Shown here: positions 69-25,185 of the stretch, in pieces
Layout: every line of letters begins with the position of its first letter
Position numbering within the stretch: the first letter of the stretch is position 1
Assembly: GCA_016223165.1 (NCBI GenBank)
Contig: JACRPO010000003.1
Coordinates: 62,001-126,000 of the forward strand
Source: Burkholderiales bacterium
Lineage (GTDB): Bacteria > Pseudomonadota > Gammaproteobacteria > Burkholderiales > Burkholderiaceae_C
Direction of reading: 5' to 3'
Length of the DNA: 64,000 nt
The notes under the pieces: generated by a model
The model's input: the letters and a program-made list of their open reading frames with translations, nothing else
Told to the model about the DNA's origin: nothing
Database searches by the model: none
Program-made: the position numbers and the translations under genes

Positions 69-785
69 TCAGTAGCTCCAGTCTTCGTGCCGCACCGGAA
101 GCCGGTTCAGCAATTCCCGGCGATGAGGCCACCCCGGGAGGAACCGATCCATGAGTGCGACGAATCGCGCGTTGTGCGTCGGCTCCAGCATGTGCACCAG
201 CTCATGCACGACGATGTACTCGAGGCACTCGCCCGGCTTCTTCGCCAGGTCGGCATTGAGGCGGATCGTGCCGGCGGCAGGATTGCAGCTTCCCCAGCGG
301 GTTCTCATGCGCTGGACGAACAAGGCCTTCATCCGCACACCGATCTGCGGCTGCCAATGGGCGGCAAGCGCCTCCGCCTCGGCGCGAAGCCGCTCCCTGT
401 ACCACGCCTCGAGGATCTCCTTGCGCCGCGCAGCGTCGGCTCCGGGCCGCACGAACAGGGTCAGTCGGGCCCGCCGTAACTGCACCGACGGTGCGGCATC
501 CCGCTCGACCACACTCAGAAGGCAACGAGTTCCCCACACGTAGTGGCTCTCCCGCTCGATGTACTCGCGCTCAGTCTCCCTCTCCTGCTCGCGCAGCTTC
601 TTCTGCTGCTGCCTGATCCACCCGAGCTTCGAGATCGCGAACAGGCGGATGGTGTCCAGCTGCATCCTCGCGGGGGCCGCCAGCCTCACCCTCCCGGCGG
701 GCGGATAGACACTCAGATGGACGTTCTTGATGTCCTTCTTCACGACATCCAGAACGATGCCTCCGAGCTCGATCTGCGTGGCCAT
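69..785 (-). CDS. YgjP-like zinc metalloprotease (DUF45/M48-type)
   Basis: A 238-residue protein with the zinc-protease motif HELVH at residues 194-198, a third histidine at 204, and the RWGSC block at 163-167 typical of the YgjP/DUF45 (WLM-SprT-like) family. It is the last gene of the type I restriction operon. Its ATG overlaps the hsdR stop codon (TGATG), so it is probably translationally coupled to hsdR. Reading the frame further upstream gives a longer ORF that only shadows hsdR, so the start at 785 is preferred. Homologues of this family are often found next to hsdR genes; whether the protein helps turn over restriction subunits or does something separate is unknown. No signal peptide is seen, so it should be cytoplasmic. 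Confidence 0.88.
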   Translation of the reverse strand: MATQIELGGIVLDVVKKDIKNVHLSVYPPAGRVRLAAPARMQLDTIRLFAISKLGWIRQQQKKLREQERETEREYIERESHYVWGTRCLLSVVERDAAPSVQLRRARLTLFVRPGADAARRKEILEAWYRERLRAEAEALAAHWQPQIGVRMKALFVQRMRTRWGSCNPAAGTIRLNADLAKKPGECLEYIVVHELVHMLEPTHNARFVALMDRFLPGWPHRRELLNRLPVRHEDWSY

Positions 786-3937: not shown

Positions 3938-5886
3938 GAGATAGCCTCCCCCGCAAGAATCTCGCTGTTCACGTACTGCCGGAACTCGTCGGCGTTCATG
4001 AAGCACCGGTAGCCCGCTTGACTGGCAACCGCGATCGTCTCGGTGCTCTCGTTCAACAGCAAGGCGACAGGCTGGCTGAGCTCCTCCTGGATGCCATTCG
4101 GCCACGCTAAGTCAAACACCGCTTTCTGTTCGCCAGTAGCCTCATCGGCAAAGTCATACGCAAGGAGCCCGCGGGGCAAGCCCTGCGCCTCCATCCAAGC
4201 ATTGAGGGCCTCCAAATGCTCCTCCTCTTCCTCGCTGCTGATGCCGCCAATCAGGGCGCCAGCAACGGCCACCGCCGCCGCTGGGCCGGCCAGCCAGCGC
4301 GCATCGCCATGCAGCAGATCCTCCATTCGCCGGTTCAGCTCGGCCGAGAGCAGCGTCTTCCGAGCCTCGAGGAACTCGCGGAAGTTCTTGATCTTCCACA
4401 ACTCAGGATCAGTGGGGATCCATTGGGAAGCCAACACGCCTGGATGGCGCGCCTCGAACTTCGGGAAGTATTCCTCCGGCAGCCGATCGCTGATCTCCAG
4501 GTTGGTTTCCTTGGTCTGGAAGCAGAAGTTCGCCAGCGCGTTTACCTCCGGTCGCTTGAGCTTGCGCTTGTAGAGTTGCGCCTTTGGAAAGATGTGGTGA
4601 ACCTCGAGCCGGCTCATCTTGCCCAGCATGCTGGACTTCAGTGGGATGCCAAGCCCCCAGTCCTTGGCTTCCCCCATCCGCGTCAGCATGTAGAGCACAG
4701 GATAGAACCGGGCGCCGAGGCTCCAACCCGTGAAGTGCCCGGGCTCCGCCCGCAATCCCCCGTGCCACAGCCTCAGCTGTTCCAGCAGCTTGTCGAGGCC
4801 ACCGTCCGGCCCTTCCAGCGCGGCCAGGTCCTGGTCGATGAAGGACTCCGTCGAGCCCGAGAACCGGCCCCACATGCCGGCCTGCACAAACCAGAACAGC
4901 AGCTTGTCGCGGTCCTCGGCCGTCATCGGCCCGGTGCGACGATCCAGGTAACGCACCATCACCGGCACGCCGAAGCGGCCGAAGAAGACCTGGTCGTGAT
5001 CCAGCCCCAGCCGCCCGCTGATTAGGTTGAGGCTGGTGTCCACATGCTTGGTCGCGCGCTTCAGCCCGTCCTGGATCTCCTCTGCGCTCTTCTCGTGCAG
5101 GAACTGAAACTTCGCCTCGCCCGTGAGCGCCGTGTTCACCGAACGCAGCAGCCAGTCGAGGTTGAAGTGGAAGTCCGCCTTCGCCCATACCTTGAGCTTG
5201 TCTTTCATCGTGTCGCGGGCCTCGGGCCAGTCGGCGCAAATCTTGGCCAGCGCCAGGTCGCCCTTGGAGAGCTTGGTGCCGCCGCTGTTGACCATGTTGA
5301 AGATGTCGACGACGACATCCAGCGTCTTGTCGACGCCAGTGACTTCCTCGGTGTGCAGCTCAATGTCCAGGATGCCCAGGATGCGTGAGATTCGCGCGGA
5401 GTACTTGACTGCCTTGACGCCGACCCTGGGATCCTCCGAAAGCCGTTCGACCAAGGCTTCGTGCCCAGCCTGCCCGTGGCTCATCAGCGCAGTCACGTCG
5501 ATCCACAGCGGCTCGTCCTTCATCGTCACCGGCTGGTAGAAGGCGAAGGCTTCCTGATCCAGGTGGAAGCGCAGCCCTGTGAATGCCTTGGCGTTGCCAT
5601 CAAAGAACTTCGGCGGCTTGCCGCGCACCACGCCGTAGAGCGACGTCATGCGTTGCTGCCCGTCGAGCAGCAGCTTCACTACGCCGGCCGCCAGCTGCCC
5701 GTCGCCGCGATGCGCCGCCGACTTTGACTCCGTGGCCCAGACCAGCAGCCCGCCCACCGGCCGGCGCAGGTAGAGCGACGTGAACAGCTTGCGGACCTGA
5801 TCGCTGTTCCAAACATAGCCGCGCTGAAACTCGGGCAGCGCCATGTGGCCGCTGTCGATATGGTCCAGGATGGTGGAGATCTTCAT
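3934..5886 (-). CDS. DUF262 / HNH (GmrSD-like) protein embedded in the hsd operon
   Basis: A 650-residue protein. The N-terminal DUF262 domain (about residues 1-230) carries the ParB-like motif DGQQR at 75-79, which in this superfamily hydrolyses or senses nucleotides. The C-terminal half has a DUF1524-type HNH nuclease core, EVHHIF at 428-433 followed by NALANFCFQTKETN. The layout resembles GmrS-GmrD fusions of type IV restriction, which attack modified phage DNA. It starts with ATGA overlapping the hsdS stop and ends with GTGA overlapping the hsdR start, so it is a fixed member of the operon. Its last roughly 100 residues, after the HNH part, are acidic and I do not recognise them. Function within the RM complex is inferred only. 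Confidence 0.88.
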   Translation of the reverse strand: MKISTILDHIDSGHMALPEFQRGYVWNSDQVRKLFTSLYLRRPVGGLLVWATESKSAAHRGDGQLAAGVVKLLLDGQQRMTSLYGVVRGKPPKFFDGNAKAFTGLRFHLDQEAFAFYQPVTMKDEPLWIDVTALMSHGQAGHEALVERLSEDPRVGVKAVKYSARISRILGILDIELHTEEVTGVDKTLDVVVDIFNMVNSGGTKLSKGDLALAKICADWPEARDTMKDKLKVWAKADFHFNLDWLLRSVNTALTGEAKFQFLHEKSAEEIQDGLKRATKHVDTSLNLISGRLGLDHDQVFFGRFGVPVMVRYLDRRTGPMTAEDRDKLLFWFVQAGMWGRFSGSTESFIDQDLAALEGPDGGLDKLLEQLRLWHGGLRAEPGHFTGWSLGARFYPVLYMLTRMGEAKDWGLGIPLKSSMLGKMSRLEVHHIFPKAQLYKRKLKRPEVNALANFCFQTKETNLEISDRLPEEYFPKFEARHPGVLASQWIPTDPELWKIKNFREFLEARKTLLSAELNRRMEDLLHGDARWLAGPAAAVAVAGALIGGISSEEEEEHLEALNAWMEAQGLPRGLLAYDFADEATGEQKAVFDLAWPNGIQEELSQPVALLLNESTETIAVASQAGYRCFMNADEFRQYVNSEILAGEAIS

Positions 5887-7085
5887 ACGAGGCGCGTCCT
5901 TCCAGTGAGCAGTTCCTGGATCATGGCCTGCTTGAGGTCGCGGGTCTTGTCGCGGCGTTGGTCCAGTACCAACAACTCGGCATCCATGTCGCCTAGCGCA
6001 TCGGCAATCGCACCTTGTTCCGGGAGTGGTGGCAGCGAGAACTCGAAGTTTTTCACGATGTTCCAGTCAGACCGAGGCATGTGGGTGCCGTATGAATTGC
6101 TCGCGGCTTCGATGAACTCGTCGGTCTTGATGAGCTGAAATAGAAACCCGGTTGTCACCAGCCGGTCCTTCGGCGCGAGCACCCAGACTTCCGTCGAGCA
6201 AACGCCAGCGCGGGTCGCCAACCAGTACTTGCGAAGGTACGCGCGAAGCTTTCCGAAGAGCACGTCGCCGGCCCGGAACACCGACTTGAGCGAGGACTGA
6301 TCGCCCGTGGTGGTGCTTCCAAGTAGTTCGCCACTTTCTGATTCGATGTGCTCCAGCTCGATGCAGAAGTCCTGAACGCCTGCCCTTCTCGGATCCACTC
6401 TGTCACGGCGGGGAAGTGCCACCTCTCCGAACCGCCTCACCTCCCACTCGTCGTGGAAGCTGGGGAGGCGAGTTTGGCCAGTGAGGAGTTGCTGCATGGC
6501 GGCCTGTTTCAGGTCGCGCTTCTTGGCGATAAGCCGGTCCAGCGCGCCCAGCAGCGCATCCACATCGCTCAACGCCGCCGCGATGGCGCGTTGTTCGGGT
6601 ACGGGTGGAACGGGTAGGTCCACCTTCACGAGGTCAGACTTCTTGACGTGGACGAATGAGGCTTTGAAGCCGTGAGCTTGCTTCGCAATGTCCTCTTCGA
6701 CTCTGGCGAACACCAGGAGAGAAAACGGCAGCGTTATCTGCTCCTGATCCATGTGCACCTTGAAGATGTGCTGGTTCAGGACGCCAGATGGACCTGCCCA
6801 AACACGCGCACCAAAAGAGGTTCCTATCGTTCCTGACCACGCGAACAGGAGGTCACCAGGCTCTACGCGGTTTCTCTCCGGAACTGGGGCTTGGGAGAAG
6901 TTGAACGGGGCATACGGGTCGTTCAGATTCTGGATTCGGATGATTGGCGTGCCGCTCTGCTTCCAGTCGGCGGGCTTGAATGGGCATCCGTTGACAAGCC
7001 GAAACATCTGACCAATAGAGCGAACGCCCCACTCGGCCGGGATCACGCCGATGTCGGTCTGCTTGTAGCCGGGCCTCACGCCCAT
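5883..7085 (-). CDS. hsdS: Type I restriction specificity subunit HsdS
   Basis: A 400-residue DNA-recognition subunit. It has two target-recognition domains, each followed by a conserved helical spacer. The two spacers are near-repeats: PPVPEQRAIAAALSDVDALL near residue 165 and PPLPEQGAIADALGDMDAEL near 355. Both end in a stretch like RDLKQA-LLTG-TRL. This two-TRD layout predicts recognition of a bipartite asymmetric target. The start overlaps the end of hsdM by 10 bases and the stop overlaps the next ATG as ATGA. The target sequence cannot be predicted from the protein by eye. Confidence 0.96.
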   Translation of the reverse strand: MGVRPGYKQTDIGVIPAEWGVRSIGQMFRLVNGCPFKPADWKQSGTPIIRIQNLNDPYAPFNFSQAPVPERNRVEPGDLLFAWSGTIGTSFGARVWAGPSGVLNQHIFKVHMDQEQITLPFSLLVFARVEEDIAKQAHGFKASFVHVKKSDLVKVDLPVPPVPEQRAIAAALSDVDALLGALDRLIAKKRDLKQAAMQQLLTGQTRLPSFHDEWEVRRFGEVALPRRDRVDPRRAGVQDFCIELEHIESESGELLGSTTTGDQSSLKSVFRAGDVLFGKLRAYLRKYWLATRAGVCSTEVWVLAPKDRLVTTGFLFQLIKTDEFIEAASNSYGTHMPRSDWNIVKNFEFSLPPLPEQGAIADALGDMDAELLVLDQRRDKTRDLKQAMIQELLTGRTRLV

Positions 7086-9541
7086 ACCGCCCCCATCTTC
7101 TTGAGATGTTCATCGACGCAGGCAGCGAGGGCAGCGACTTCACTGGTGAGTTTCGGCAGCGGTGTGGCGTAGCGTTCGGCGAGCTGACGAATGCGGCCGG
7201 TGAGCGTTTGCGACACACGGTCCAACTCGCCCTGCACCGCAGCGGCCAGGGTGGCCAGCCACTTGTCGTCCACGACCAGGGTCTTGACCTCGTCCTCGGT
7301 GAGCTGGCCGTACTTGGCGGCGACCTTGGCCATCAGCGCGTCCTGCGCAGCCTTGAGCTTGGCGCAGGTGTCGGCGTCCTGCTCGATGAGCGCCAGGTAG
7401 TCTTGCAGCAACTGGCGCTCGTCGGCGGTGTCGGGGTCGGCCTTGCCGATCTCCATCAGCCGTGCGGCGACGCTGGCCTTGGTGAGCTTGTCCTTGTCGC
7501 TCTTGGCGTCATCCAGCAGGCTGCCTTCGCCACCGTGCTCCTCAGCCATCTCCTCCATCTGCTGCGCCAGAGCGGCAAGCTGTGCCTCCAGCGCGTCGAT
7601 GGCGGCCTGCTCCTTGGCGAAGTAGCGGGCAATGACGAGGGCCGGCGGGATCAGCTCGGCGGCGTACTTCTTCTTGCCCAGAGCGAAGTCGGGCCGGGTC
7701 TTGGTCTTGCCCGCCTTGTCCTCGACGATGAGCCGCGGCTGGGCCGCCGCCACCCAGCCATCATCGGCTATGAGGTAGCAGTCGTCCTGCATCGCCTCGC
7801 CCCAGTAGTCCAATAGATGCTGGTAGATGTCGTAGGCGTCGAGCAGCGGGGCGTGCTCGAAGCTGGCGAGCAGCGCCTCGGCGATGGTCTCGATCAGGGC
7901 CTTGGGGTGGCCGTCCTGGGCAAAGCCGCGCAGGTGTGGGCTGTTTGCAGCCTTCCACGCCGCGAATAGCTCGGTGGCGGTGGCGATGAAGGCGGTGAAC
8001 TCGGCGTGGCCGAAGATGGTGGGCTTGATGTCGGTGGACGCGACGCGAAGCTGGCTGTAGCCGGGGCGACCGGCCGGCTGGAACAGCGCGGCGCGCACGG
8101 CGGGAAAGACCTGCCAGTAGGGGGCCAGCGCGTCGAGGTCGCGGTCGGGGATGCCGCCGCGCAGGTGGGCGTCGATGTCCTGCAGGTCCTCGGGCTCGGT
8201 GCTGTCGATATAGCGCGGCAGGTTGAGGTTGAAGTCGTTCTTCGGGTCGCTGATCTCGGCCAGGGGCACCCGGCGCGCGTAGCCGGGCACGTGCACTTGC
8301 CGGGTGAAGGTGTCGACGATGCGATGGATGTCCTGCTCGCGCAGGCGGTTCTTCGGGCCGTCCTTCCGGAAGCCCTTGCTGGCGTCGACCATGAAGATGC
8401 CACCCTGGGCCGATGCGCGGGCCTGGGCGTCCTCCTTGTCGAGCACGATGACGCAGGCGGGGATGCCGGTGCCGTAGAACAGGTTCGCAGGCAGGCCGAT
8501 GATGCCCTTGATGTATCCGCGCAGGACGAGGTTCTTACGGATCACGCCCTCGGCATTGCCGCGGAACAGCACGCCATGCGGCAGGATGCAGGCGCCCTTG
8601 CCGGTGCTCTTGAGCGAACGCAGGATGTGCAGCAAGTAGGCGTAGTCGCCCTGCTTGGCCGGCGGCGTGCCGAAGTGTTTGAAGCGCGCGTGCGGGTCGT
8701 TCGCAGGGTCGAGGCCGGTGCTCCAGCGCTTGTCGCTGAACGGCGGATTGGCGACGACGTAGTCGAAGGTCTTGAGCTGGCCGCTGGCGTCGGTGAACAG
8801 CGGGTTGGCCAGCGTGTTGCCCTGCCTAACGAGTGCCGTGGGGTTGTCGTGCAGGATCATGTTCATGCGCGCCAGGCCAGCGGTGGCGGAGTCTTTCTCC
8901 TGCCCGTAGAGCGTGACCTTGGCCTTCGCGGCGTCGCCCACCTTGAGCAGCAGTGAGCCTGAGCCGCAGGCGGGGTCGTAGACGGTGGTGGCGCTGGTGG
9001 TATCGGCGCGGCCGATGCCCAGGATGCTGGCCATGATGCGGCTGACCTCGGCCGGCGTGTAGAACTGGCCCTTGCTCTTGCCACTCTCGGTGGCGAAGTG
9101 GCGCATCAGGTATTCGTAGGCGTCGCCGAGGATGTCGTCGCCGTCGGCGCGGTTCTTCGAGAAGTCCAGCGCCGGGTTCTCGAAGATGGCGATCAGGTCG
9201 GTGAGCCGGTCCACCAGCTCCTTGCCGGTGCCGAGCTTGGTGGCGTCGGCAAAGTCCGGCATGTCCGAGAGCTTGTTGGCCGCGGCCAGCGGCCCGAGGA
9301 TCTTCTTGTTGATCTGGTCGCCGATGTCGCTCTTGCCCTTGAGCGCGACCATGTCCACGAAGCCGGCGCCGGGCGGGATGGTGATGGGCGCGAAGGGCTG
9401 GCCGGCGTACTTGTCGCTGATGTACTTCACGAACAGCAGCACGAGGACATAGTCCTTGTACTGGCTGGCGTCCATGCCGCCGCGCAGGGCGTCGCAGCTT
9501 TGCCAGAGGGAGGAGTAGAGCTCGGATTTCTTCAGGGCCAT
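7076..9541 (-). CDS. hsdM: Type I restriction DNA methyltransferase HsdM
   Basis: An 821-residue N6-adenine methyltransferase subunit. The SAM-binding motif DPACGSGS is at 189-195 and the catalytic NPPF at 265-268. An N-terminal helical bundle (from about MALKKSELYSSLWQSCDALR) precedes the catalytic domain. The protein is clearly longer than classical HsdM (about 500 residues). The extra C-terminal 300 residues are rich in charged helices and look coiled-coil-like around residues 640-800. First gene of the operon, divergent from the QueC-like cassette; the shared intergenic region must hold its promoter. No strong ribosome-binding site is visible at this start. Confidence 0.96.
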   Translation of the reverse strand: MALKKSELYSSLWQSCDALRGGMDASQYKDYVLVLLFVKYISDKYAGQPFAPITIPPGAGFVDMVALKGKSDIGDQINKKILGPLAAANKLSDMPDFADATKLGTGKELVDRLTDLIAIFENPALDFSKNRADGDDILGDAYEYLMRHFATESGKSKGQFYTPAEVSRIMASILGIGRADTTSATTVYDPACGSGSLLLKVGDAAKAKVTLYGQEKDSATAGLARMNMILHDNPTALVRQGNTLANPLFTDASGQLKTFDYVVANPPFSDKRWSTGLDPANDPHARFKHFGTPPAKQGDYAYLLHILRSLKSTGKGACILPHGVLFRGNAEGVIRKNLVLRGYIKGIIGLPANLFYGTGIPACVIVLDKEDAQARASAQGGIFMVDASKGFRKDGPKNRLREQDIHRIVDTFTRQVHVPGYARRVPLAEISDPKNDFNLNLPRYIDSTEPEDLQDIDAHLRGGIPDRDLDALAPYWQVFPAVRAALFQPAGRPGYSQLRVASTDIKPTIFGHAEFTAFIATATELFAAWKAANSPHLRGFAQDGHPKALIETIAEALLASFEHAPLLDAYDIYQHLLDYWGEAMQDDCYLIADDGWVAAAQPRLIVEDKAGKTKTRPDFALGKKKYAAELIPPALVIARYFAKEQAAIDALEAQLAALAQQMEEMAEEHGGEGSLLDDAKSDKDKLTKASVAARLMEIGKADPDTADERQLLQDYLALIEQDADTCAKLKAAQDALMAKVAAKYGQLTEDEVKTLVVDDKWLATLAAAVQGELDRVSQTLTGRIRQLAERYATPLPKLTSEVAALAACVDEHLKKMGAVWA

Positions 9542-9722: not shown

Positions 9723-9806
9723 AGGCGCGACGCCCAAGGACGCTCGGGCTGCGCCAGCCTCGTGCATGGCGCCCATTCGATCCGGGCATGGCGTGGAGGG
9801 GAGACG

Positions 9807-10586
9807 ATGGGACACGTCCGCCTCGGGACACTTCCTCGAACACGGAACTGGATTCAGGTTCTTGACCTCGTGGGCAGCGGCGCCGGGGCGCCTCACATCG
9901 CCGCTGCGACGATGGAGGCGTCGCAACGCGGCCTGGCCAAGGCCGCGCAGGACCCGGGCCTCGTCTACACCGTCTGGCTCCTGACTCAGGTGCCGCTGGC
10001 GGCCCGAAGCAAGGACTTCGTCGCCCGCCTTCACAAGCTTGGCCTTCAGGTGTCGGACTCACCCAGCCTGTTGGAGGTGACGGGGGCGTTCGCCGATGCG
10101 GTGGACGCGCACTTGCGTCGCACCGGGGGGCGCACCGACCTGGGCGAGATGGCGCAGATGGCGGCCTCCGAAGCGCTTACCGCACTTGGGACGCCCGCGA
10201 ACGCGAGTCTGTTCGAGACCACCACGCCCACTGCGCAGCAGACCATCGGGTCGTTTACCACCGCCCGGCGATTCAGCGCGCTCGCAGCGGAGTTCTTCAC
10301 CCGCCTGACGAGGAAGTACCTCACCTACTTCCTCAGCCGCGAGCTCTCCAACTACGTCGGCGTGGATGGCCGCTTCCCCAACGTCGACCGACACGCCGAG
10401 TTCAACAGCGCTCTGGATCTCCACTGCCGCCAAGCCTCGCTGATCATCGAGGAGTTCTCCGGAGGCTGGTTCTCGAAGGGCAACTTCAAGGGTCCGATCA
10501 CTCAGAAGAACGCCGCCGGCTACGTTCACGTCGCCCTGAAGAAGCTTCGCGCCGAGCTCGCCAAAGGGACTCCCGGTGGCGAGTAA
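9807..10586 (+). CDS. QatB-like partner of the QueC-like enzyme (candidate modified protein)
   Basis: A 259-residue protein with no catalytic motif I recognise. The ATG at 9807 is chosen because GGAGGGGAG (9795-9803) sits just upstream and the frame before it is low-complexity. It begins MGHVRLGTLPRTRNW, so Met removal would expose an N-terminal glycine. The C-terminal half is helical, with FFTRLTRKYLTYFLSRELSN at about residues 152-171. That resembles in layout, though not in identity, the C-terminal helices of QatB. It overlaps the next gene by 11 bases, which suggests the two products act together. In Qat systems QatB is the partner of the QueC-like QatC. Assignment as QatB-like is inferred from gene pairing and architecture. 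Confidence 0.7.
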   Translation: MGHVRLGTLPRTRNWIQVLDLVGSGAGAPHIAAATMEASQRGLAKAAQDPGLVYTVWLLTQVPLAARSKDFVARLHKLGLQVSDSPSLLEVTGAFADAVDAHLRRTGGRTDLGEMAQMAASEALTALGTPANASLFETTTPTAQQTIGSFTTARRFSALAAEFFTRLTRKYLTYFLSRELSNYVGVDGRFPNVDRHAEFNSALDLHCRQASLIIEEFSGGWFSKGNFKGPITQKNAAGYVHVALKKLRAELAKGTPGGE

Positions 10587-12528
10587 TGAGCGCGTCATCC
10601 TTTGTGGGGGCCTGACCGCCACCGGCAAGGCACGAGGGCAGGAGGTGGTGCCCCTGTTGCTATGGGGCAAGGATTACAACGTCACGCTCAAGGTCAGCGA
10701 CATCAGCCAGAAGATGGTGGCCAACGTCGCGCCGGAACTGATCGACCTCCTCGAGATCGCCACCTACGTGTACTGCGCCGATCAGGCCACCACTCGAGGC
10801 GGCAACAGCTCACAGGACTATGGTGCGAAGTGGAGGCGACAGCTTCAGTTCCACATCCCCGTGCGCGAGCCCGAGCTGTGGTCCTCCAAGCCAGTTCGCA
10901 CGGCACTGTGCGCCACGCTGGGGTTCCTGTCGGACGATGAGTATGAGTTCACGTTCAAGAAGCTGGCCAGGCCACCCCCCGCAGACCAGTACCTGGACTT
11001 CGGTGCAGGCGGGGCATCGGGCTTTCAGGCGGAGGAGGTCGTCTTGTTCTCGGGCGGGCTCGACTCACTCGCCGGCGCGGTGCAGGAGGCCATCATCAAC
11101 AAGAGGTCGGTTGCACTGGTCAGCCACCGATCCTCGCCGAAGATTGACAGCAAGCAGAAGGCGCTCGTACAGGATCTTCTCGCCCGCGGCCAGGCCAGGC
11201 AGCCCTTTCATGTGCCGGTCTGGGTCAACAAAGAGAAGGCGCTTGGCAAGGAATACACACAGCGCACGCGCTCTTTTCTCTTCGCCTCCCTGGGAGCCGT
11301 CGTCGCGCGCATCTTTGATCTATGGAGGATTCGCTTCTACGAGAACGGGGTCGTCAGCATCAACCTGCCGATTTCGCCTCAGGTGGTCGGTGGACGGGCA
11401 ACACGGACCACGCACCCTCAGGTGCTGAACGGGTTCGCCGAGATCTTCTCCGCCATCTTTCAGAAGCCATTCGCGGTCGAGAATCCGTTTCGCTGGATGA
11501 CTAAGGCCGAGGTCGTGAAGTCCATTCGAGATGGCGGGGGCGGTGACCTCATCAAGCACACGGTGAGCTGCACCCACGTGTGGGAGATGACGACGCTGAA
11601 GACCCACTGCGGCACCTGCTCGCAGTGCATCGACCGGCGCTTCGGGACGCTTGCTGCTGGGTGCCCGGATTCGGAAGATCCGGAAGAGATGTACGCCGTC
11701 GACCTGATGCGTGGGGAACGACCACCCGGAGACAGCCGCACGATGCTTGAGTCCTACGTCGGTACTGCAAAGCGGGTCAGGGGTATGACCGACACCGCCT
11801 TCTTCACAGAGTTCGGCGAGGCACATCGTGTGACCCGGCACATTCAGGGCATGAAGGCGGATGACGCCGCGACCGGAATCCTGGGCCTGTACAAGCGGCA
11901 CGCATCTCAAGTGGCCGAGGTCATTGCCAGGGGGATCCGGGAGCACGCGCAAGACATCAGTGACGGCAAGGTGCCCAGCGATTGCCTACTGATCCTCGCC
12001 TTGCCGGACGAGTACAAGAGGCCGGCAACGTTTGCCGACGAGGCGCCGACGCCACTGCTGATCCTCGACGAGATCAAGGATGGCGAGACCAATCGGGGAT
12101 TGCTGGCAAGAGTCGTGGGGAACGGGCGCTTCGAGGGGGTCAACAAGAAGATCGGCTCACGCGAACTCTTCTTCGTCGCTCTGCTCTTCGGGTCGACTCG
12201 CGCCCACAACTTTGCCGGCTACCACGTCACGGTGGTTCCAGAGGGGGAGGTCTCACGGGAACTGCTGAAGTGGAGCGACGATGGCTACTTGAAGTTCGCC
12301 GGAAAGGACAGAGCCGCGCCAAGCCATCGAGTCCTAAAGATGTGGGGCGAATTCGTTCGCCAGATCGAGATGGAGAGCAACCTCAGGAACCTCTTCACCA
12401 ACATGCACAAGAGCCTCGAAGGCGAGCGGCTCTATGGGATCCGCCTGCGACCGAAGGAGAAGCGGGTGTTGGTTACCAGCATCCCTGCGCTCTTCCGAAA
12501 GCCCGCTGCAAAGGTGCCAGTTCGGTAG
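10576..12528 (+). CDS. QueC-like PP-loop ATPase (QatC/Cap9-like defence enzyme)
   Basis: A 650-residue protein with a GTG start inside the end of the previous gene; AAAGGGA lies 7 bases upstream. The N-terminal part (1-130) has DLLEIATYVYCADQATTRG and IPVREPELW, which recall the N-terminal domain of QatC and Cap9. The PP-loop SGGLDS is at 159-164. The QueC zinc-type cysteines are C332, C345, C348 and C351 (CGTCSQC). WMTKAEVV also matches the QueC family. Housekeeping QueC (about 225 residues) makes preQ0; this long form with a dedicated partner is typical of phage-defence loci. Residues beyond about 420 form a C-terminal extension I do not recognise. No other preQ0 genes lie nearby, so biosynthesis of queuosine is unlikely. 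Confidence 0.85.
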   Translation: MASNERVILCGGLTATGKARGQEVVPLLLWGKDYNVTLKVSDISQKMVANVAPELIDLLEIATYVYCADQATTRGGNSSQDYGAKWRRQLQFHIPVREPELWSSKPVRTALCATLGFLSDDEYEFTFKKLARPPPADQYLDFGAGGASGFQAEEVVLFSGGLDSLAGAVQEAIINKRSVALVSHRSSPKIDSKQKALVQDLLARGQARQPFHVPVWVNKEKALGKEYTQRTRSFLFASLGAVVARIFDLWRIRFYENGVVSINLPISPQVVGGRATRTTHPQVLNGFAEIFSAIFQKPFAVENPFRWMTKAEVVKSIRDGGGGDLIKHTVSCTHVWEMTTLKTHCGTCSQCIDRRFGTLAAGCPDSEDPEEMYAVDLMRGERPPGDSRTMLESYVGTAKRVRGMTDTAFFTEFGEAHRVTRHIQGMKADDAATGILGLYKRHASQVAEVIARGIREHAQDISDGKVPSDCLLILALPDEYKRPATFADEAPTPLLILDEIKDGETNRGLLARVVGNGRFEGVNKKIGSRELFFVALLFGSTRAHNFAGYHVTVVPEGEVSRELLKWSDDGYLKFAGKDRAAPSHRVLKMWGEFVRQIEMESNLRNLFTNMHKSLEGERLYGIRLRPKEKRVLVTSIPALFRKPAAKVPVR

Positions 12529-12570
12529 CTCGCCGAGCGCAAGAGTGAACCCAGGCTTCCCATGATCCGA

Positions 12571-14034
12571 TCACTCCTGGGGCGCTTGCTCCGCCAAGCC
12601 TTCTGCCAGAAACGACTGAAGAGACTCAAGCTTGGCCAGCAGTTCATCGAAGGTCACTACCTGCACGCCATGCATCGATCGTCGCGCGAGCTCGAAGGAC
12701 TTCAAGAGTGCTTCTGACGTGCGCGAGGGAAGGACTCCGGCAATCAAGACGCAGTCCACAGCGTAAGCCTGGAGGTCGCGTATGCCGGAGTTGTCTTTGA
12801 GCAGTGAGATGCTGCGCTGAAGCTGATATCGCTGGTCAAGTAGCTGCTGCACTCCGCCGGCGAGCTCCGGTGACATCGGGTAGACGCCGCCACGGTACTC
12901 CTTCTTAGACAGAAGGTCAGTCCCTGGTCTCTTGATCTCCACGATAGCGAGATTGCCGCTTGAAGCATGGCGAGCGGCAAAATCCGCGAACTTGGTGCCC
13001 CCGCCAGACAACTTGGTACCGCCAACAGCGATTTGCTCGCCGATCTTGATGACGGGATAGCCGAACGCCATCGACAGCACGAACGCGTTGTCCGCGAGGA
13101 ACGCCTGCCAGTCGGCCTCTGATAGAGGCTGGCCAAGCCGCGACTTGAACTTCTCGATCAACTGCGACAGCGTCACGAGCTCGAGTTCGCTACGCAGCCG
13201 CAAGACCTTCTTCGGCTGGTCTCTTGCGATGGTCTCCTTGCACTTGGCAACGAGTTCAACCGCTGCGGACTGATCCTTTGCAGTCAACCCCGTCGACGCA
13301 GTAGCAGCCACGACGCGGTACACGGCATCGCGCCTGTACCGAGGAGGCGTCTCCGGGAACATCTTCGGGTCGATCGCTTGCAGCATCTGGTTGTGGACCA
13401 AGTCTCGCTTGTCCGAGGCTGCTTCCGTTCGGTAGTGCACTGTGATGCGCTCGAGCGCGCGCCTCATTCCATCGAAGAAGTCCGCCGGCAGGATGAAAGT
13501 CGATCCTTCGACTCGAGGTGCTGAAATGTCTCCTCGCCTAATGACAAGGGTTTCGACATTCGGTACGTCAGTGGCAGCATGAACGATGGCCAAGTTCTTC
13601 TTGTGCATGCCAAGTCCGAACTGGTATCCCTTGACGAACCCCGCCGGCAGTCCATCGAGGATGTCAGCGGCCTCTCCCGCAGAGTTGGGGAAGCCTAGGC
13701 CGAAACCCTCGAAGACAATCGACTTCAAGCCTGGATGCTTGGGCTGCAAGAAGTCGTGCTCTGTCTTGTAGGGTCGCAACGGGAACGTCTCAAGCACATC
13801 AGGGTTCGCGTGAAACTTCGCCAACAGGGCCGACTTCTTCACGAGCCGCTTGGGTTCCATGAAAGCGGCCTCGTTCGCGAAGTCGACGAAGTAGATCAGC
13901 GCGTTCCCCGCCTCGTCTACCTCCAGTTCCAGTTGGGCCGTGTCACGCACACCGGGGACCCCGGTTTCGGCACCTTCCTCGCGCTCACGATCCTCGAGGC
14001 CTTCGGGGGTGGAGTCGTTGTCGTCGGTTGGCAT
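12571..14034 (-). CDS. sduA: Shedu anti-phage nuclease SduA (DUF4263)
   Basis: A 487-residue protein. The C-terminal DUF4263 nuclease domain (about 300-440) has W309-AFLADN, D351 after KFADF, the E366-I-K368 motif within VEIKRP, and Q396-Q397 followed by YQLQRS. These are the PD-(D/E)XK-type residues of Shedu. The first roughly 290 residues form the variable sensor/regulatory part and are not recognisable by motif. Shedu is a single-gene defence system; family members assemble as oligomers and nick or degrade phage DNA. The gene lies tail-to-tail with the QueC-like gene, 42 bases apart, and carries its own promoter region upstream of 14034. Confidence 0.9.
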   Translation of the reverse strand: MPTDDNDSTPEGLEDREREEGAETGVPGVRDTAQLELEVDEAGNALIYFVDFANEAAFMEPKRLVKKSALLAKFHANPDVLETFPLRPYKTEHDFLQPKHPGLKSIVFEGFGLGFPNSAGEAADILDGLPAGFVKGYQFGLGMHKKNLAIVHAATDVPNVETLVIRRGDISAPRVEGSTFILPADFFDGMRRALERITVHYRTEAASDKRDLVHNQMLQAIDPKMFPETPPRYRRDAVYRVVAATASTGLTAKDQSAAVELVAKCKETIARDQPKKVLRLRSELELVTLSQLIEKFKSRLGQPLSEADWQAFLADNAFVLSMAFGYPVIKIGEQIAVGGTKLSGGGTKFADFAARHASSGNLAIVEIKRPGTDLLSKKEYRGGVYPMSPELAGGVQQLLDQRYQLQRSISLLKDNSGIRDLQAYAVDCVLIAGVLPSRTSEALLKSFELARRSMHGVQVVTFDELLAKLESLQSFLAEGLAEQAPQE

Positions 14035-14439
14035 TCGGTCGGTTGCTAGAGGCAGCCCTGAGATGGTAAGTCGTCGCCGACATGCCTGAGGCTAGCCGAG
14101 GACGAAGGGGCATCTTGGAAGGCAGGAGTTCCTGTTCTCGTTCTTTCGGTCACCCTGACAGCTTTCGAAGCAGGCGTTTGCGGCGCCCAAGCGTGTTCTT
14201 CAGGAGCGCCCAAGGCTTGCGGCCATCCCTCGCGCCGCCTTGAGGCCCCCGAGCCCGCTCTTGGATGGGCGGCTCTTTCTTGCTCGGAGGGTGTGAAACC
14301 TTCACACCCCGGTGCTCTGCCAAGTCCTTGTCGGACAAGGCTTTCCGGCCTCATGCCGTGCTCCCTTCACAGGGATCAATGAAACCTCTCGCTCCACAAC
14401 ACTTCCGTGGAGTTCAAGTTCACCCAGAGAGGCTCGAGC
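14035..14439. other. 405-base gap upstream of sduA and alpA-like genes
   Basis: This stretch separates divergent sduA and the AlpA-like gene and must contain both promoters. It holds a perfect inverted repeat (14289-14309) and a weak hairpin, CTCCAC at 14392-14397 with GTGGAG at 14407-14412. A 62-codon basic reading frame on the minus strand (14150-14338) is possible but unsupported. Confidence 0.6.
14289..14309. promoter_or_regulatory. Perfect 9+3+9 inverted repeat, candidate operator
   Basis: GGGTGTGAA, three bases (ACC), then TTCACACCC: a perfect palindrome with a 3-base centre. It lies 131 bases before the AlpA-like ATG and 255 bases before the sduA ATG. There is no T-run, so an operator is more likely than a terminator. 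It resembles the CRP half-sites TGTGA/TCACA but with 5 rather than 6 bases between them. Confidence 0.5.
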
Positions 14440-14682
14440 ATGACCCACACGATCCTGCGGCTTCCCGCCGTACTCAAGCGCCGAGGCAAGTCGCGTAGCG
14501 CGCACTACGCCGACATCAAGGCAGGCCTCTTCGTCAAGCCAGTGAAGCTTGGTCTGCGAGCCCGCGGCACGCCAGAGGACGAGGTCGAAGTGCTCAACGC
14601 TGCGACGATCGCTGAGAGGTCCGAGGACGAGATTCGCACCCTGGTGCAGAAGCTGGAAGCGGCTCGCAAGGCGGCGAAGTAG
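14440..14682 (+). CDS. AlpA-like phage/island regulator
   Basis: An 80-residue protein starting MTHTILRLPAVLKRRGKSRS, typical of AlpA (Phage_AlpA) excisionase-type regulators: a short winged-helix DNA-binding fold with ADIKAGLFVKPVKLGLRA in place of the usual recognition segment. The ATG at 14440 follows AGAGAGG; an in-frame GTG at 14407 would add 11 residues but has poorer spacing. Such proteins control excision and integrase expression in genomic islands. It sits just 5 bases before the primase gene, so the two are likely co-transcribed. Confidence 0.8.
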   Translation: MTHTILRLPAVLKRRGKSRSAHYADIKAGLFVKPVKLGLRARGTPEDEVEVLNAATIAERSEDEIRTLVQKLEAARKAAK

Positions 14683-14687
14683 CGGGT

Positions 14688-17264
14688 GTGGCGGTGAATG
14701 CGCCCGTGACAGTTTCGCCAACTCGCGCCATGCAATCCGACGCAACCGACGGAACCTACTCCGTCGGCAACGGTGAGTTCCTGGCCACCGTGTTCGGCGC
14801 CGGGCTCGCCGACGCGCGCCCGGTCGTGGTGAGCTTCAGCGGCGACCCTGCCAAGGTTGCCGGCGGCGCGTGGTCTGGGCAGCCTTGGTCACCCCATCAG
14901 CCTGCGGTGCCCGCGAGTCTGCCGGCTGGCGCCAACAACTACTTCAGCCTCGCCGCATTCAAGCCCGACGCTGCAGGTCACTGCCGCCGACAGAAGGCGC
15001 GTTTCGCGGCCCTGTACGCGGTGATGCTGGATGACGTGGGCACCAAGGTGGCCATGGAGCTGCTGCCACTGCCACCGTCGTGGCTGCTGGAGACATCGGC
15101 GGGCAACCACCAGGCCGGGTACCTGCTTCGCCAGCCACTCGAGGACGGCGATGCGGCCGATCGACTGATGAACGCCATCGTCGCCGCGGGGCTGTGCGAC
15201 CCCGGTGCCAACGGCCCGCGCGCGCGGTTGGCTCGGCTGCCTGTGGCGGTGAACGGCAAGCACACGCCGCCCTTTGTTTGCCGATTGGTCGAGTGGCAGC
15301 CCGACCTGCGCTACTCGACCGAGGAACTGGTCGATGGCCTCGAGCTGGAGATGCCGGCCGCGGGGCGGCCGCAGCGGCGGAAGACGCGCGCCGCGCAGGA
15401 GCGCCCGGGCGACGGCGATCCGGTGTGGATCCCTCGCCCCGACGAGAACGGCGTGCTGGTCACGTTGCGTGGCCGCGGCCTGTACAAGGCGCCGCTCGGC
15501 GACGGCAAGCACGACATCACTTGCCCCTGGGTGCAGGATCACACCGGCGCGGCCGACGGCGGCACCGCCTACTTCGAGCCTGACGACAGTTGGCCGATCG
15601 GCGGCTTCAAGTGCCTCCATGGCCACTGCGCCGAGCGGCACGTGCGCGACCTGCTGCGCTTCGTGGGCATCGAGGTCAGCGAAGCGCGCATGAAGCCGAC
15701 GATCCGCGTCGTGGCCGGTGAGATCCACCGCGTGGTGGATGCGGCCGAGCGCGAACTCGCCCAATCGAGGCGGCACTACCAGCGCGGCGGGCTGATCGCG
15801 ACCGTGGTCACCGACCCCGGCACGCGCGAGAGCCGGGTGCAAGACATCGGCCCGCCAGCCTTGGTGCGGGCGCTCTCCGGCGCCGCCACCTGGGAGAGGT
15901 TCGATGGGCGCGCGCAGGACTGGGTGCGCATCGACCCGCCAGCGCGGCACGCAGCGGTGCTGTTCGACTCGACCAGCTACCGCCATCTGCCTGTGCTGAA
16001 CGGACTCACACGCCAACCCTATGTGCGAGCGGACGGCAGCCTGATGACAGCGGCCGGCTACGACACAGCCACGGGCATGTTCGGCGTGTTCGACGCGCGC
16101 GAGTTCTCCATCCCGGCGAGGCCGACCCGCACGCAGGCCGAAGGGGCACTGGCCCTGCTGAAGGATCTTCTGGCCGAGTTCAGTTTCGCGGCCGACACCG
16201 ACTTGGCAGCGGCCCTGGTCGCGATGCTCACCGCGGCTGTCCGCCCGACCCTCCCCCACGCGCCGATGTTCCATGTGCGGGCGCACATGGTCGGTTCCGG
16301 CAAGTCCTATCTGTGTGAGCTGATCACCGGCTTCGCCACGCCCCAGCGCGGCACGCCCACCACTTTTCCCGGCGACGACGAGGAGTGCCGCAAGCTGCTG
16401 CTCGCCGAGATGCTGCGGGCGCCGGCGGTGATCGAGTTCGACAACCTCACCGGCGACCTGGTGGCGCACAAGAGCCTGTGCACCGCGCTGACCTCGGAGC
16501 ACATGAGCGGCCGCATCCTGGGCGTGTCCAAGACGGCCACCGTCAGCACGCGCACCTTGTTCCTCTCGAGCGGCAACAACGTGGGGCCCGTGCAGGACAT
16601 GAGCCGGCGGTGCATCACGATCCATTTGACCCCCGATTGCGAGGTGCCGGCAGCGCGCAGCTTTTCGCGGCCCGACCTGGTGCGGGAGGTGCTGAGCGAA
16701 CGCGGCCGTTACGTCTCGGCAGCGCTGACCATCGTTCGCGCCTGGATCGATGCCGGCAGGCCGATGACCGAGTGCAAGTCGCTGGCGGGATTCGGCGAGT
16801 GGTCTGCGCTTTGCCGGCAGCCCCTGATGTGGCTCGGCCTCCGCGACCCGACGGCATCCGTGTTCAAGGCCATGGCCGAAGACCCGGATCGCGAAACGCT
16901 CGGGCGCCTGTTGATTGCGTGGCAGCGGGCCTTCGGCAAGACCGCGGCGATGGTGCGCGATGCCGTGAAGGAGGCATCGGCCTTCCACGACGGACACGCC
17001 GAGCTGCGGGAGGTGCTGCACGACATCGCCGCCGAACGTGGCGAGGTCAACCGGCGCAAGTTGGGGTGGTGGATTCGCAGGCATGCCGGCCGCATCGTCG
17101 ATGGCCTGCGGTTCGCGCGCGCCAGCGGCAACCGCTCGGCCGAGGCTTGGCAGGTGGAATCGGTTTCGCCGGTTTCATCGGTTGCCGCAGCCGCGAAGGG
17201 GAAAGGTGTCAGCGCCGCAGCCAGCGGTGCCAACACCTACGCCCTGGCCAGCCGAGGCGCCTGA
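14688..17264 (+). CDS. RepB-type DNA primase/helicase of an integrated element
   Basis: Up to 858 residues. The N-terminal part shows the RepB-like primase features NNYFSLAAF, ALYAVMLDDVGTK and AGYLLRQPLED, followed by a GLCDPGANGPRARLARLPV block. A zinc-type cluster GGFKCLHGHCAERH lies near residues 305-320. The C-terminal half is a P-loop motor with GSGKS at 536-540 and EFDNLTGDL. This primase-plus-helicase form is common in phage-like plasmids and integrative elements, where it primes element replication. The GTG at 14688 is used; an ATG at 14730 is an alternative start. Without the GTG the gap to the AlpA-like gene would be 47 bases. Confidence 0.85.
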   Translation: MAVNAPVTVSPTRAMQSDATDGTYSVGNGEFLATVFGAGLADARPVVVSFSGDPAKVAGGAWSGQPWSPHQPAVPASLPAGANNYFSLAAFKPDAAGHCRRQKARFAALYAVMLDDVGTKVAMELLPLPPSWLLETSAGNHQAGYLLRQPLEDGDAADRLMNAIVAAGLCDPGANGPRARLARLPVAVNGKHTPPFVCRLVEWQPDLRYSTEELVDGLELEMPAAGRPQRRKTRAAQERPGDGDPVWIPRPDENGVLVTLRGRGLYKAPLGDGKHDITCPWVQDHTGAADGGTAYFEPDDSWPIGGFKCLHGHCAERHVRDLLRFVGIEVSEARMKPTIRVVAGEIHRVVDAAERELAQSRRHYQRGGLIATVVTDPGTRESRVQDIGPPALVRALSGAATWERFDGRAQDWVRIDPPARHAAVLFDSTSYRHLPVLNGLTRQPYVRADGSLMTAAGYDTATGMFGVFDAREFSIPARPTRTQAEGALALLKDLLAEFSFAADTDLAAALVAMLTAAVRPTLPHAPMFHVRAHMVGSGKSYLCELITGFATPQRGTPTTFPGDDEECRKLLLAEMLRAPAVIEFDNLTGDLVAHKSLCTALTSEHMSGRILGVSKTATVSTRTLFLSSGNNVGPVQDMSRRCITIHLTPDCEVPAARSFSRPDLVREVLSERGRYVSAALTIVRAWIDAGRPMTECKSLAGFGEWSALCRQPLMWLGLRDPTASVFKAMAEDPDRETLGRLLIAWQRAFGKTAAMVRDAVKEASAFHDGHAELREVLHDIAAERGEVNRRKLGWWIRRHAGRIVDGLRFARASGNRSAEAWQVESVSPVSSVAAAAKGKGVSAAASGANTYALASRGA

Positions 17265-17285
17265 CCCGTTGTCGCCGAGTCGACC

Positions 17286-17789
17286 ATGCGCAAGCGCCAC
17301 CCGAACCATCGCCTGGCCAAGATCCACCGGAACTACACGGTGGACGAGGTCGCCGGCTTGTTTGGCATTCACAAGAACACCGTGCGGGAGTGGGTCAAGC
17401 GCGGCCTGCCGACCAGCGACGACAGGCGGCCGATGCTGATCCTGGGTAGCGAGCTGGTCACGTTCCTGCGAGCCAAGCGAGAGAAGAACAAGCGCACCTG
17501 CAAGCCCGGCGAGATCTACTGCGTCCGCTGCCGGGCACCGAAGTCACCGGCGGGCCAGATGGCGGACTACATGCCCTTGACTCAGACCCAGGGCAACCTG
17601 GTCGGCATCTGCCCCGACTGCGAAACGATGATCTTCCGGCGCGCCAGCCTCGCCAAGCTGGCGCTGGTTCGCGGGAAACTGGACCTCAGGCTGCCGCAAG
17701 CACTGCAACACATAGTCGAGAGCGCCGAGCCCTCCGTGAACAGTGACTTCGCAAAGGACGCACGAGACCATGGCGACGCACAACGCTGA
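17286..17789 (+). CDS. HTH / zinc-ribbon protein upstream of the integrase
   Basis: A 167-residue protein. Residues about 15-55 form an excisionase/MerR-like helix-turn-helix (YTVDEVAGLFGIHKNTVREW). A zinc ribbon follows, with cysteines in IYCVRCRAPKS and GICPDCETM. Its end overlaps the start of the integrase gene by 20 bases, indicating coupled expression. The pairing suggests an accessory role in recombination, such as a recombination directionality factor or a DNA-bending partner, but this is inferred. The last 20 residues lie over the integrase start and may be disordered. Confidence 0.8.
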   Translation: MRKRHPNHRLAKIHRNYTVDEVAGLFGIHKNTVREWVKRGLPTSDDRRPMLILGSELVTFLRAKREKNKRTCKPGEIYCVRCRAPKSPAGQMADYMPLTQTQGNLVGICPDCETMIFRRASLAKLALVRGKLDLRLPQALQHIVESAEPSVNSDFAKDARDHGDAQR

Positions 17790-18876
17790 GAACGAACGGA
17801 TCAAGCGCAGCTACTTCGTCTTCCTGAAGGAAGCCAAGCGGCAGAGCGAGGACTCGGTGGACGCGGTGGCAAAGGCGCTGGCGCGGTTCGAGGCCGACAC
17901 GCGCCACCGGGACTTCAAGGCCTTCCACTTCGAGCAGGCCATCGCATTCAAGAAGCACCTGAGTGAGCAGGACAGCCGGGCCACCGGCGGCAAGCTCAGC
18001 AAGGCGACGTTGAACGCGACGCTCGCGCACCTGAAGCGGTTCTTCCAGTGGATGGCAGACAAGCCGGGCTACAAGTCGCGGCTGCAGTACTCGGACGCCG
18101 AGTACTTCAACCTGTCGGAGAAGGACACCAGGGTGGCGACCGCGCGGCGCGAGCGGCCGGCGCCGACGCTCGAGCAGATCCGGCACGTGATCGCGCTGAT
18201 GCCGAGCCAGACTGAGATCGAGCGGCGCGATCACGCGCTGGTGGCCTTCGCGTTGCTCACCGGCGCGCGGGACAGCGCCATCGCCTCGATGAAGCTCAAG
18301 CACGTGGACCTGGCCGCAGGCAGCGTGTTCCAGGACGCGCGGGACGTGCAGACCAAGTTCAGCAAGACCTTCACGACGTACTTCTTTCCGGTCGGTGGTG
18401 CGCCTCGAGAGATCGTCGAGGCCTGGGTCACGTACTTGCGGCAGGAGAAGCTGTGGGGCAATGACGACCCGCTGTTCCCGGCAACCCTGGTGGAGCTCGG
18501 CGAAGCGAGGCAGTTCGAAGTCACGGGCCTGGCGCGGCGGCACTGGAGCAGCGCGTCGCCAATTCGCACGATCTTCCGACGCGCGTTCGAGTCCGCGGGT
18601 CTGCGCTACTTCAACCCGCACAGCTTCCGCACGACCCTGGTTCAACTCGGCCAGACCCTGTGCCGCGACGCCGAGCAGTTCAAGGCGTGGAGCCAGAATC
18701 TCGGACATGAAGGCGTGCTGACGACGTTCCTGAGCTACGGGAGCGTCGCGCAGGGGCGGCAAGGGCAGATCATTCAGGCGCTGGCGACGACCGATCCCCA
18801 CCCGAGAGGGAGTGTCGAGGCGCTGGAGCGTGCGGTGATGGATGCGATTCGTGGTGCCAAGCTGCTCTCCGGCTAA
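17770..18876 (+). CDS. int: Tyrosine site-specific recombinase (integrase)
   Basis: A 368-residue integrase from the ATG at 17770; an in-frame start at 17743 would add nine residues. The N-terminal SAM-like core-binding domain (1-110) precedes the catalytic domain. Catalytic residues visible are R167 in LTGARDS, H284 and R287 in HSFR, H313 in LGHEG and Y323 in LSYGS; a lysine near 196 or 199 fits the beta-strand position. It would insert or excise the element that carries the AlpA-like and primase genes. No obvious attachment-site repeat was found next to the gene. Confidence 0.92.
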   Translation: MATHNAENERIKRSYFVFLKEAKRQSEDSVDAVAKALARFEADTRHRDFKAFHFEQAIAFKKHLSEQDSRATGGKLSKATLNATLAHLKRFFQWMADKPGYKSRLQYSDAEYFNLSEKDTRVATARRERPAPTLEQIRHVIALMPSQTEIERRDHALVAFALLTGARDSAIASMKLKHVDLAAGSVFQDARDVQTKFSKTFTTYFFPVGGAPREIVEAWVTYLRQEKLWGNDDPLFPATLVELGEARQFEVTGLARRHWSSASPIRTIFRRAFESAGLRYFNPHSFRTTLVQLGQTLCRDAEQFKAWSQNLGHEGVLTTFLSYGSVAQGRQGQIIQALATTDPHPRGSVEALERAVMDAIRGAKLLSG

Positions 18877-24803: not shown

Positions 24804-24834
24804 CCTCTCGGCCCCTGGGCGCACAAGGCTCGGA

Positions 24835-25119: not shown

Positions 25120-25185
25120 TGGATCCCCCTTTCGAAACAGACAGGCAACCAAGCTGTAGAGGCCACGGTTAGGCTCCTAGTCTTG

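What the first reader, a model, noticed from the sequence alone, without database searches (positions are those of the whole stretch)
9807..12528. Reduced Qat-like cassette: a Met-Gly protein with a QueC-like enzyme and no QatA or QatD
Seen: a 259-residue protein beginning MGHVRLG overlaps, by 11 bases, a 650-residue enzyme with PP-loop SGGLDS (159-164), the QueC cysteines C332, C345, C348, C351, and a QatC-like N-terminal domain. Known, from memory: QatC in Qat and Cap9 in type IV CBASS are QueC-like, and QueC-like enzymes of this kind have been reported to attach a deazaguanine to the N terminus of a partner protein. Inference: the small protein is the modified partner. A Met-Gly start would expose a free N-terminal glycine, and no ATPase (QatA) or TatD nuclease (QatD) is present, so this would be a minimal two-gene system, possibly undescribed. 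It lies between a type I RM operon and Shedu.
Basis: partly seen in the sequence, partly recalled or inferred. Interest (0 to 1): 0.87.

Follow-up and report, generated by a model that had tools for sequence, protein, structure and literature searches.

The report
Two-gene sister of Qat phage defence
Two overlapping genes encode a small protein with a strongly conserved Met-Gly start and a QueC-like enzyme carrying an extra, interchangeable tail; they form a widespread mobile pair that looks like a natural two-gene relative of the Qat anti-phage system, and may work by chemically tagging the small protein.

The parts
9795..9803 (+). Shine-Dalgarno-like GGAGGGGAG in front of the small gene
   Evidence: sequence; 7 nt from GGAGG to ATG
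9807..10586 (+). QatB-like partner protein, 259 aa, all-alpha, starts MGHVRLGTLPRTRNW
9807..9851 (+). conserved N-terminal motif MGHxRLGxLPRTRxW; Gly2 would be exposed after Met removal
   Evidence: most conserved 15-residue window, rank 1 of 245; Gly2 invariant in the 80-row alignment A3
10576..12528 (+). QatC-like enzyme, 650 aa, GTG start
   Evidence: ORF; PADLOC QatC 1.1e-54; NCBIfam QatC 205.6 bits, below cut-off 280; PDB QatC chains 9vlk, 9zee
10576..12006 (+). complete QatC fold (N-terminal extension, QueC-type PP-loop core, C-terminal helices), residues 1-477
11050..11067 (+). ATP PP-loop SGGLDS, residues 159-164
   Evidence: sequence; S159, D163, S164 in 58 of 58 relatives
11401..11418 (+). 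TRTTHP, residues 276-281: counterpart of QatC T278/T280, which replace the Tyr/Asp substrate-reading pair of QueC and Cap9
   Evidence: aligned; residue 276 is T in 46 and S in 12 of 58, residue 278 is T in 56 of 58
11569..11628 (+). zinc cysteines C332, C345, C348, C351
12007..12525 (+). added C-terminal domain, residues 478-650, at a place where relatives carry unrelated domains; fold of this type not settled (strand/helix order resembles a winged helix)
12571..14034 (-). neighbour: Shedu SduA, 487 aa
   Evidence: PADLOC SduA 5.5e-140
785..9541 (-). neighbour: type I restriction-modification operon with an inserted GmrSD_N/DUF262 gene
14407..18876 (+). mobile-element module: AlpA-like, 858-aa protein, HTH protein, tyrosine integrase
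   Evidence: Pfam; the same four genes follow the cassette in L001 and the end of the enzyme gene in L002, at 58-81% identity

Best explanation
A mobile two-gene immune cassette, sister to the QatBC core of qatABCD. The QatC-like enzyme binds the QatB-like protein, uses ATP to activate a small carboxylic acid (identity unknown) and joins it to the freed N-terminal glycine (Gly2) of the partner. The conjugated complex then blocks phage growth. The added C-terminal domain of the enzyme does a job that separate proteins do in qatABCD: it places the complex on nucleic acid (winged-helix-like types) or cuts it (nuclease types). Shown here by computation: conserved pairing, separate clade, QatC fold with intact ATP and zinc sites, QatB-like predicted fold of the partner, conserved Met-Gly start, swapped C-terminal domains. 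Inferred: complex formation, N-terminal conjugation, defence, role of the C-terminal domain.
For: Pairing: 74 of 74 loci retrieved by the enzyme alone with 800 nt upstream (69 distinct enzymes); 82 of 83 distinct enzymes overall, gap -11 in 39 and -4 in 17 of 82. Clade 100/94. ATP-site and zinc residues kept in 58 of 58. QatB-like fold. N-terminal 15 residues are the most conserved window, rank 1 of 245. The one small protein found without an enzyme (L055, 1 of 24 loci) begins Met-Asp, so it has lost Gly2; G2D is the change that kills QatB function (PMC13279940). QatB plus QatC alone defend against lambda in E. coli, and QatA binds DNA (PMC13279940). Tail swap at 72% core identity (P0217); a Trans_reg_C and two nuclease matches above Pfam cut-offs in single tails. 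Gained by transfer: 0 of 24 same-genus genomes carry it (some of these are incomplete), and it lies near an integrase module that recurs with it.
Confidence: 0.6

Rival explanations
1. The two proteins form a QatBC-like defence complex, but the small protein is not covalently changed; its N terminus only gates the enzyme's ATP site.
For: No N-terminal product has been identified for QatB itself (PMC13279940); the substrate-reading residues of QueC and Cap9 are absent.
Against: Gly2 is invariant in A3 and the start is the best-kept stretch of the protein; the orphan without an enzyme has lost Gly2 (one case).
Confidence: 0.15
2. It is a regulator of a mobile element rather than a defence system: a winged-helix-like tail binds DNA and the enzyme modifies a co-regulator.
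For: One tail of the group of six matches the OmpR-type Trans_reg_C (33.1 bits, cut-off 26.2) and one of the group of 25 weakly (14.6 bits); 10 of the 108 nearby ORFs scanned are serine recombinases and the window's copy lies near an integrase module.
Against: Two relatives carry nuclease domains in the same place; the core is QatC, whose known role is defence; the window's copy sits between restriction-modification and Shedu genes.
Confidence: 0.13
3. A decayed qatABCD operon that lost qatA and qatD.
For: Both Qat core functions are present and the two other genes are absent.
Against: A single separate clade of 58 sequences (12 of the 58 were protein entries without context), none of those with context having qatA/B/D by BLAST; the partner is not sequence-related to QatB; ATP and zinc residues are intact.
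Confidence: 0.02
4. A queuosine (preQ0) biosynthesis enzyme with a chance neighbour.
For: Pfam QueC match above its cut-off (33.6 bits, cut-off 22); source databases name some relatives 7-cyano-7-deazaguanine synthase.
Against: QueC's Tyr/Asp replaced; E. coli QatC could not replace QueC (PMC13329287); paired with the small gene in 82 of 83 cases; three carrier genomes have no recognisable QueE.
Confidence: 0.01

Closest known systems
Qat (qatABCD) anti-phage system, QatB-QatC core
   Same: QatC fold with both extensions, PP-loop, zinc cysteines, Thr/Thr pocket, the ENG...RTTHP loop that binds QatB; helical partner with Met-Gly start encoded just upstream.
   Different: No qatA, no qatD; partner not sequence-related to QatB, with MGHxRLG instead of MGTS and a tail of about 10 rather than 30-90 residues; enzyme carries an extra, swapped C-terminal domain; separate clade.
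Type IV CBASS Cap9 with CD-NTase
   Same: QueC-like enzyme beside a protein with an N-terminal Met-Gly; Cap9 is the case in which conjugation to that glycine is reported (PMC11996544 abstract; PMC13279940).
   Different: Partner has no CD-NTase match; no tRNA-transglycosylase-like Cap10 among the flanking genes scanned; Tyr/Asp pocket replaced; enzyme about three and a half times longer than the Cap9 median of ~185 aa (PMC13329287).
Canonical QueC (PF06508)
   Different: N- and C-terminal extensions, partner gene, substituted substrate pocket, no queuosine genes among the flanking genes scanned.

Membership tests
Qat (qatABCD) system | QatC-fold QueC-like enzyme with intact ATP and zinc sites | tested here: met
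Qat (qatABCD) system | QatC by curated NCBIfam cut-off (NF041925, 280 bits) | tested here: not met
   205.6 bits
Qat (qatABCD) system | KAP ATPase QatA in the operon | tested here: not met
   none among the window's flanking genes; 0 of 89 distinct relatives' loci by BLAST, 74 of them with at least 2800 nt upstream; the same BLAST found qatA in 12 of 12 ordinary Qat loci, one of them the source of the query
Qat (qatABCD) system | TatD-type nuclease QatD in the operon | tested here: not met
   0 of 89, 72 of them with at least 900 nt downstream; found in 11 of 12 ordinary Qat loci
Qat (qatABCD) system | QatB partner by sequence | tested here: not met
   no PADLOC or NCBIfam match; hhalign probability 2.3% against a 10-sequence QatB profile; the BLAST for qatB is weak (7 of 12 ordinary loci)
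Qat (qatABCD) system | QatB-like fold of the partner | tested here: met
Qat (qatABCD) system | N-terminal Met-Gly on the partner | tested here: met
   motif MGHxRLG, not MGTS
Qat (qatABCD) system | protects against phage | not testable with these tools
   needs plating
Type IV CBASS Cap9 | CD-NTase substrate and Tyr/Asp base-reading pair | tested here: not met
   partner has no CD-NTase match; T276/T278 at the pocket
Canonical QueC | curated QueC equivalog score | tested here: not met
   TIGR00364 24.7 bits against cut-off 150.3; the broader Pfam PF06508 is met (33.6 against 22) but only over profile positions 148-205 of 210
OmpR-type winged helix (the window's own C-terminal domain) | profile or fold match | tested here: inconclusive
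   no Pfam match; hhalign 0.1-1.1% to the other tail groups; strand/helix order resembles it; the domain was not folded alone

The most novel reading that the evidence does not exclude
A separate branch of protein-conjugating immunity in which a QueC-derived ligase attaches something other than 7-deazaguanine to the N-terminal glycine of its partner, and in which the ligase itself carries an exchangeable effector or DNA-reading domain (winged helix, DpnII-type nuclease or pPIWI-associated nuclease) that is switched on or aimed by that modification.
Probability: 0.3. Interest if true: 0.85.

Novelty: new variant of a known kind. Interest (0 to 1): 0.66.

Why it matters
Experimenters had to delete qatA and qatD to learn that QatB and QatC alone can defend against some phages (PMC13279940). 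Here is a natural lineage with just those two, and it hints at what the missing parts do: where qatABCD has separate QatA and QatD, this enzyme carries a tail that in relatives is DNA-binding-like or a nuclease. It makes two open questions directly testable: what the QatC reaction attaches (some carrier genomes appear unable to make the deazaguanine precursor), and how a modified partner leads to phage arrest. The family is common in metagenomes, yet its members are named hypothetical protein or 7-cyano-7-deazaguanine synthase where a name is given, and no PADLOC model matches the partner.

Tried and rejected
Tried without result: the small protein against Pfam, PADLOC, NCBIfam and PDB sequences, single and profile: nothing. 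hhalign of its profile against QatB: 2.3%. The five multi-member tail groups against each other: best 26%, so no common origin is claimed. A viral-contig scan with a canonical QatC (L013) confirmed nothing. Defence-neighbourhood test: PADLOC matches in 108 (of 263) nearby and 108 (of 133) distant ORFs of the same loci showed no excess near the cassette; only the first 25 families of each are shown, and the far set is rich in methyltransferases, perhaps of phage origin. I therefore do not use relatives' neighbours as evidence of defence. Phage records: 2 of 50,697 match, both distant. Plasmid records: 141 of 72,556 match, none over 80% of the query; of the three opened, one is ordinary Qat, one a two-gene pair, one an interrupted locus.

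Rejected readings: decayed Qat (tree); queuosine enzyme (pocket, pairing, missing pathway).

Rows dropped before counts, and biases: six of the 80 loci had under 800 nt upstream (five show no partner there, L082 with 775 nt does). The 74 hold 69 distinct enzymes, several near-identical. The 82-of-83 count also includes loci fetched with the small protein, which favours pairing; its exception, L015, has IS3 transposase genes upstream. One of the 82 partners (L109) shows no Met-Gly start, and the motif match LGGGRVG is spurious. In one search locus-derived small proteins had been trimmed at an MG or VG followed by H, N or T, so the 54-of-54 for Gly2 there is partly by construction; A3 (80 of 80; chosen from the 120 listed, mostly by length) and the 106 of 120 listed proteins that start MG as predicted are the fairer figures. 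The 33 same-contig pairs rest on equal contig lengths. Tail groups: 224 of 228 enzymes had a definable tail, 202 distinct. The tree kept one row per 72% identity group.

Full report
OBSERVATION. The frame of the first is open from 9540, but GGAGG stands 7 nt before the ATG at 9807 and 106 of 120 listed relatives start Met-Gly. The simple scan found no sigma-70-type promoter in 9500-12700, which says little. SGGLDS (159-164) and the cysteines 332, 345, 348, 351 align with S156-S161 and C334, C354, C357, C360 of the QatC chain 9zee_B; its numbers agree with those of P. aeruginosa QatC in PMC13279940, from which the residue roles come.

PAIRING AND CLADE. 1477 relatives of the small protein (E up to 1) and 4358 of the enzyme (E up to 0.001, of the 8000 candidates scored) were found; 33 of the 120 listed small proteins share an exact contig length with one of the 120 listed enzymes, against 0-2 in 20 controls with lengths shifted by 1-10. 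A viral-contig scan with the enzyme profile kept the best 80 of 161 loci: all 74 with at least 800 nt upstream have the small gene there (69 distinct enzymes). A scan with the small protein gave 24 loci, of which 23 have the enzyme. Together 82 of 83 distinct enzymes with room upstream are paired. BLAST with one set of Qat proteins found qatA, qatB or qatD in none of 89; 74 had 2800 nt upstream, 72 had 900 nt downstream, 57 both. The same BLAST found qatA in 12, qatD in 11 and qatB in 7 of 12 ordinary Qat loci, one of these being the source of the queries. L043 is a divergent outlier with none of them. In the tree of 71 cores the two-gene enzymes are one side of a branch with support 100/94 and the ordinary QatC with 98/98; L043 and the Leptospira protein L014 are on long branches whose placing is unsure. 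In samples of whole genomes the two-gene form occurs in 4 of 369 of the class (G000, G342, G134, G332) and 3 of 398 of the phylum (G000 again, G680, G716), as typed; it also occurs on a Leptospira noguchii plasmid (260 + 621 aa). The G342 copy (L001/L027) has an in-frame TAG in the enzyme gene after an open frame of 448 aa. Named sources of relatives include Gamma- and Deltaproteobacteria, Binatia, Bryobacteraceae and Zixiibacteriota.

THE SWAPPED TAIL. C-terminal stretches of 202 distinct enzymes fall by BLAST into five groups of 98 (the window's type, over-represented because the protein search used it as query), 57, 25, 8 and 6, plus eight singletons. Ten were scanned with Pfam: above cut-off are Trans_reg_C in the member of the group of six, DpnII-MboI nuclease in the Leptospira protein and pP_pnuc_1 (pPIWI-associated nuclease) in P0217, the last two being single cases; the member L015 of the group of 25 matches Trans_reg_C only weakly (14.6 bits); the other six, the window's type among them, have nothing above cut-off. 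P0217 is 72% identical to the window's enzyme over the core and unrelated in the tail: an outright swap, although its partner gene was not seen. The window's type was found only fused to this enzyme (the 87 hits with region 478-650 carry PF06508; proteins of 0.55-1.75 times its length searched). Its order of strands and helices in the model resembles an OmpR-type winged helix; that is my reading, not a match, and profile comparison does not support it.

SUBSTRATE. Cap9 joins 7-carboxy-7-deazaguanine (CDG) to a glycine; QatC's reaction is unknown and its altered pocket suggests another substrate (PMC13279940), while PMC13329287 takes it to be deazaguanylation. CDG needs QueE. Among six genomes with the two-gene form, G000, G342 and G680 show neither a full-length QueC nor a credible QueE (best QueE matches are weak and in open frames of 436-612 aa, or absent), while G134, G332 and G716 have both. 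G342 is the genome with the interrupted enzyme. Of 11 genomes with ordinary Qat, G265 and G453 lack both. G000 is 99% complete and has a QueD-like PTPS. Sensitivity: three same-genus genomes (G748, G750, G752) have QueE at 342-352 bits with TIGR04508, so that type would have been seen in G000; but G757, G762 and G764 have full-length QueC and no clear QueE by either model, so a QueE may also be missed or really be absent there. QueC is patchy in the genus (6 of 18 relatives; some incomplete). So in some hosts the pair would have to use another molecule, imported CDG, or be idle. This is a lead from a small sample, not proof.

MOBILITY. 0 of 24 same-genus genomes carry the enzyme. In the window an AlpA-like gene, an 858-aa protein, an HTH protein and a tyrosine integrase follow Shedu; the same four follow the cassette in L001 and the contig-edge remnant of the enzyme in L002, at 58-81% identity, and the other side of L001 is different (a helicase-NOV_C gene). 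Of 108 ORFs scanned near relatives, 10 are serine recombinases.

A NATURAL LOSS. The one small protein without an enzyme, L055, begins M-D-H instead of M-G-H and aligns over the full 259 positions (49% identity). G2D in QatB abolishes defence (PMC13279940). One case, but it is what N-terminal modification predicts.

MECHANISM. Most likely the enzyme adenylates a small acid and ligates it to Gly2 of the partner held against its loop and C-terminal helices; the tail then supplies DNA contact or cleavage. Steps shown: folds, residues, pairing, swap. Steps inferred: all chemistry, complex, phage effect. In qatABCD, QatA binds DNA and QatD is a predicted nuclease; both can be dispensed with against lambda but not against Bas25 and Bas39 (PMC13279940). 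That the tail types stand in for these two roles is my inference.

LITERATURE. Searches: QatC/QueC/CBASS, QatB or QatC, deazaguanylation, QueC-like with defense. I read parts 1-3 of 6 of PMC13279940 and parts 1-3 of 5 of PMC13329287, searched both for two-gene, fused and winged (none), and saw the abstract of PMC11996544. None of what I saw describes a natural two-gene form or the added domain. PMC13329287 reports qatA beside 34% of its QatC cluster, which leaves room for it. The library holds open-licence papers only, and the two concurrent E. coli QatBC studies cited in PMC13279940 were not seen.

VERDICT. A real, conserved two-gene sister of Qat, not described in what I could search. New variant of a known kind; interest 0.66, higher if the conjugate is new.

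Noticed in passing
L055:10001-10765: Orphan relative of the small protein with no enzyme beside it begins Met-Asp instead of Met-Gly, the substitution that inactivates QatB.
   Followed up: partly
3934-5886: A GmrSD_N/DUF262 protein (also like PADLOC HEC-05) lies between hsdS and hsdR of the type I RM operon; a YgjP-like metallopeptidase gene (69-1067) follows hsdR, overlapping its ORF.
   Followed up: no
14407-18876: AlpA + 858-aa protein without Pfam match (it holds a GSGKS motif) + HTH + tyrosine integrase form a module that recurs with this enzyme in two other MAGs (L001, L002).
   Followed up: partly
L043:5802-7170: A QatC-related protein (G032) whose PP-loop Asp is Gly in the alignment, with no qatA/B/D by BLAST and no MGHxRLG partner, on a very long branch; perhaps another QueC-derived system.
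   Followed up: no
21441-28221: Two very large lipase/esterase-like ORFs, one with RCC1 repeats and Ig-like domains, one with IPT/TIG domains, near tRNA-Val (28870-28944).
   Followed up: no
genus of G000 (G747-G764): Full-length QueC in only 6 of 18 relatives and QueE (TIGR04508) in 3 of 18, with three genomes having QueC but no QueE found: queuosine synthesis seems patchy or partly dependent on salvage in this genus.
   Followed up: partly
L014:4974-6839: Leptospira noguchii plasmid member of the pair whose enzyme ends in a DpnII-MboI-type nuclease domain.
   Followed up: partly
L001:6309-8273: The closest genome relative (G342) has an in-frame TAG that splits the enzyme gene into frames of 448 and 180 aa; the small gene beside it is intact.
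   Followed up: no
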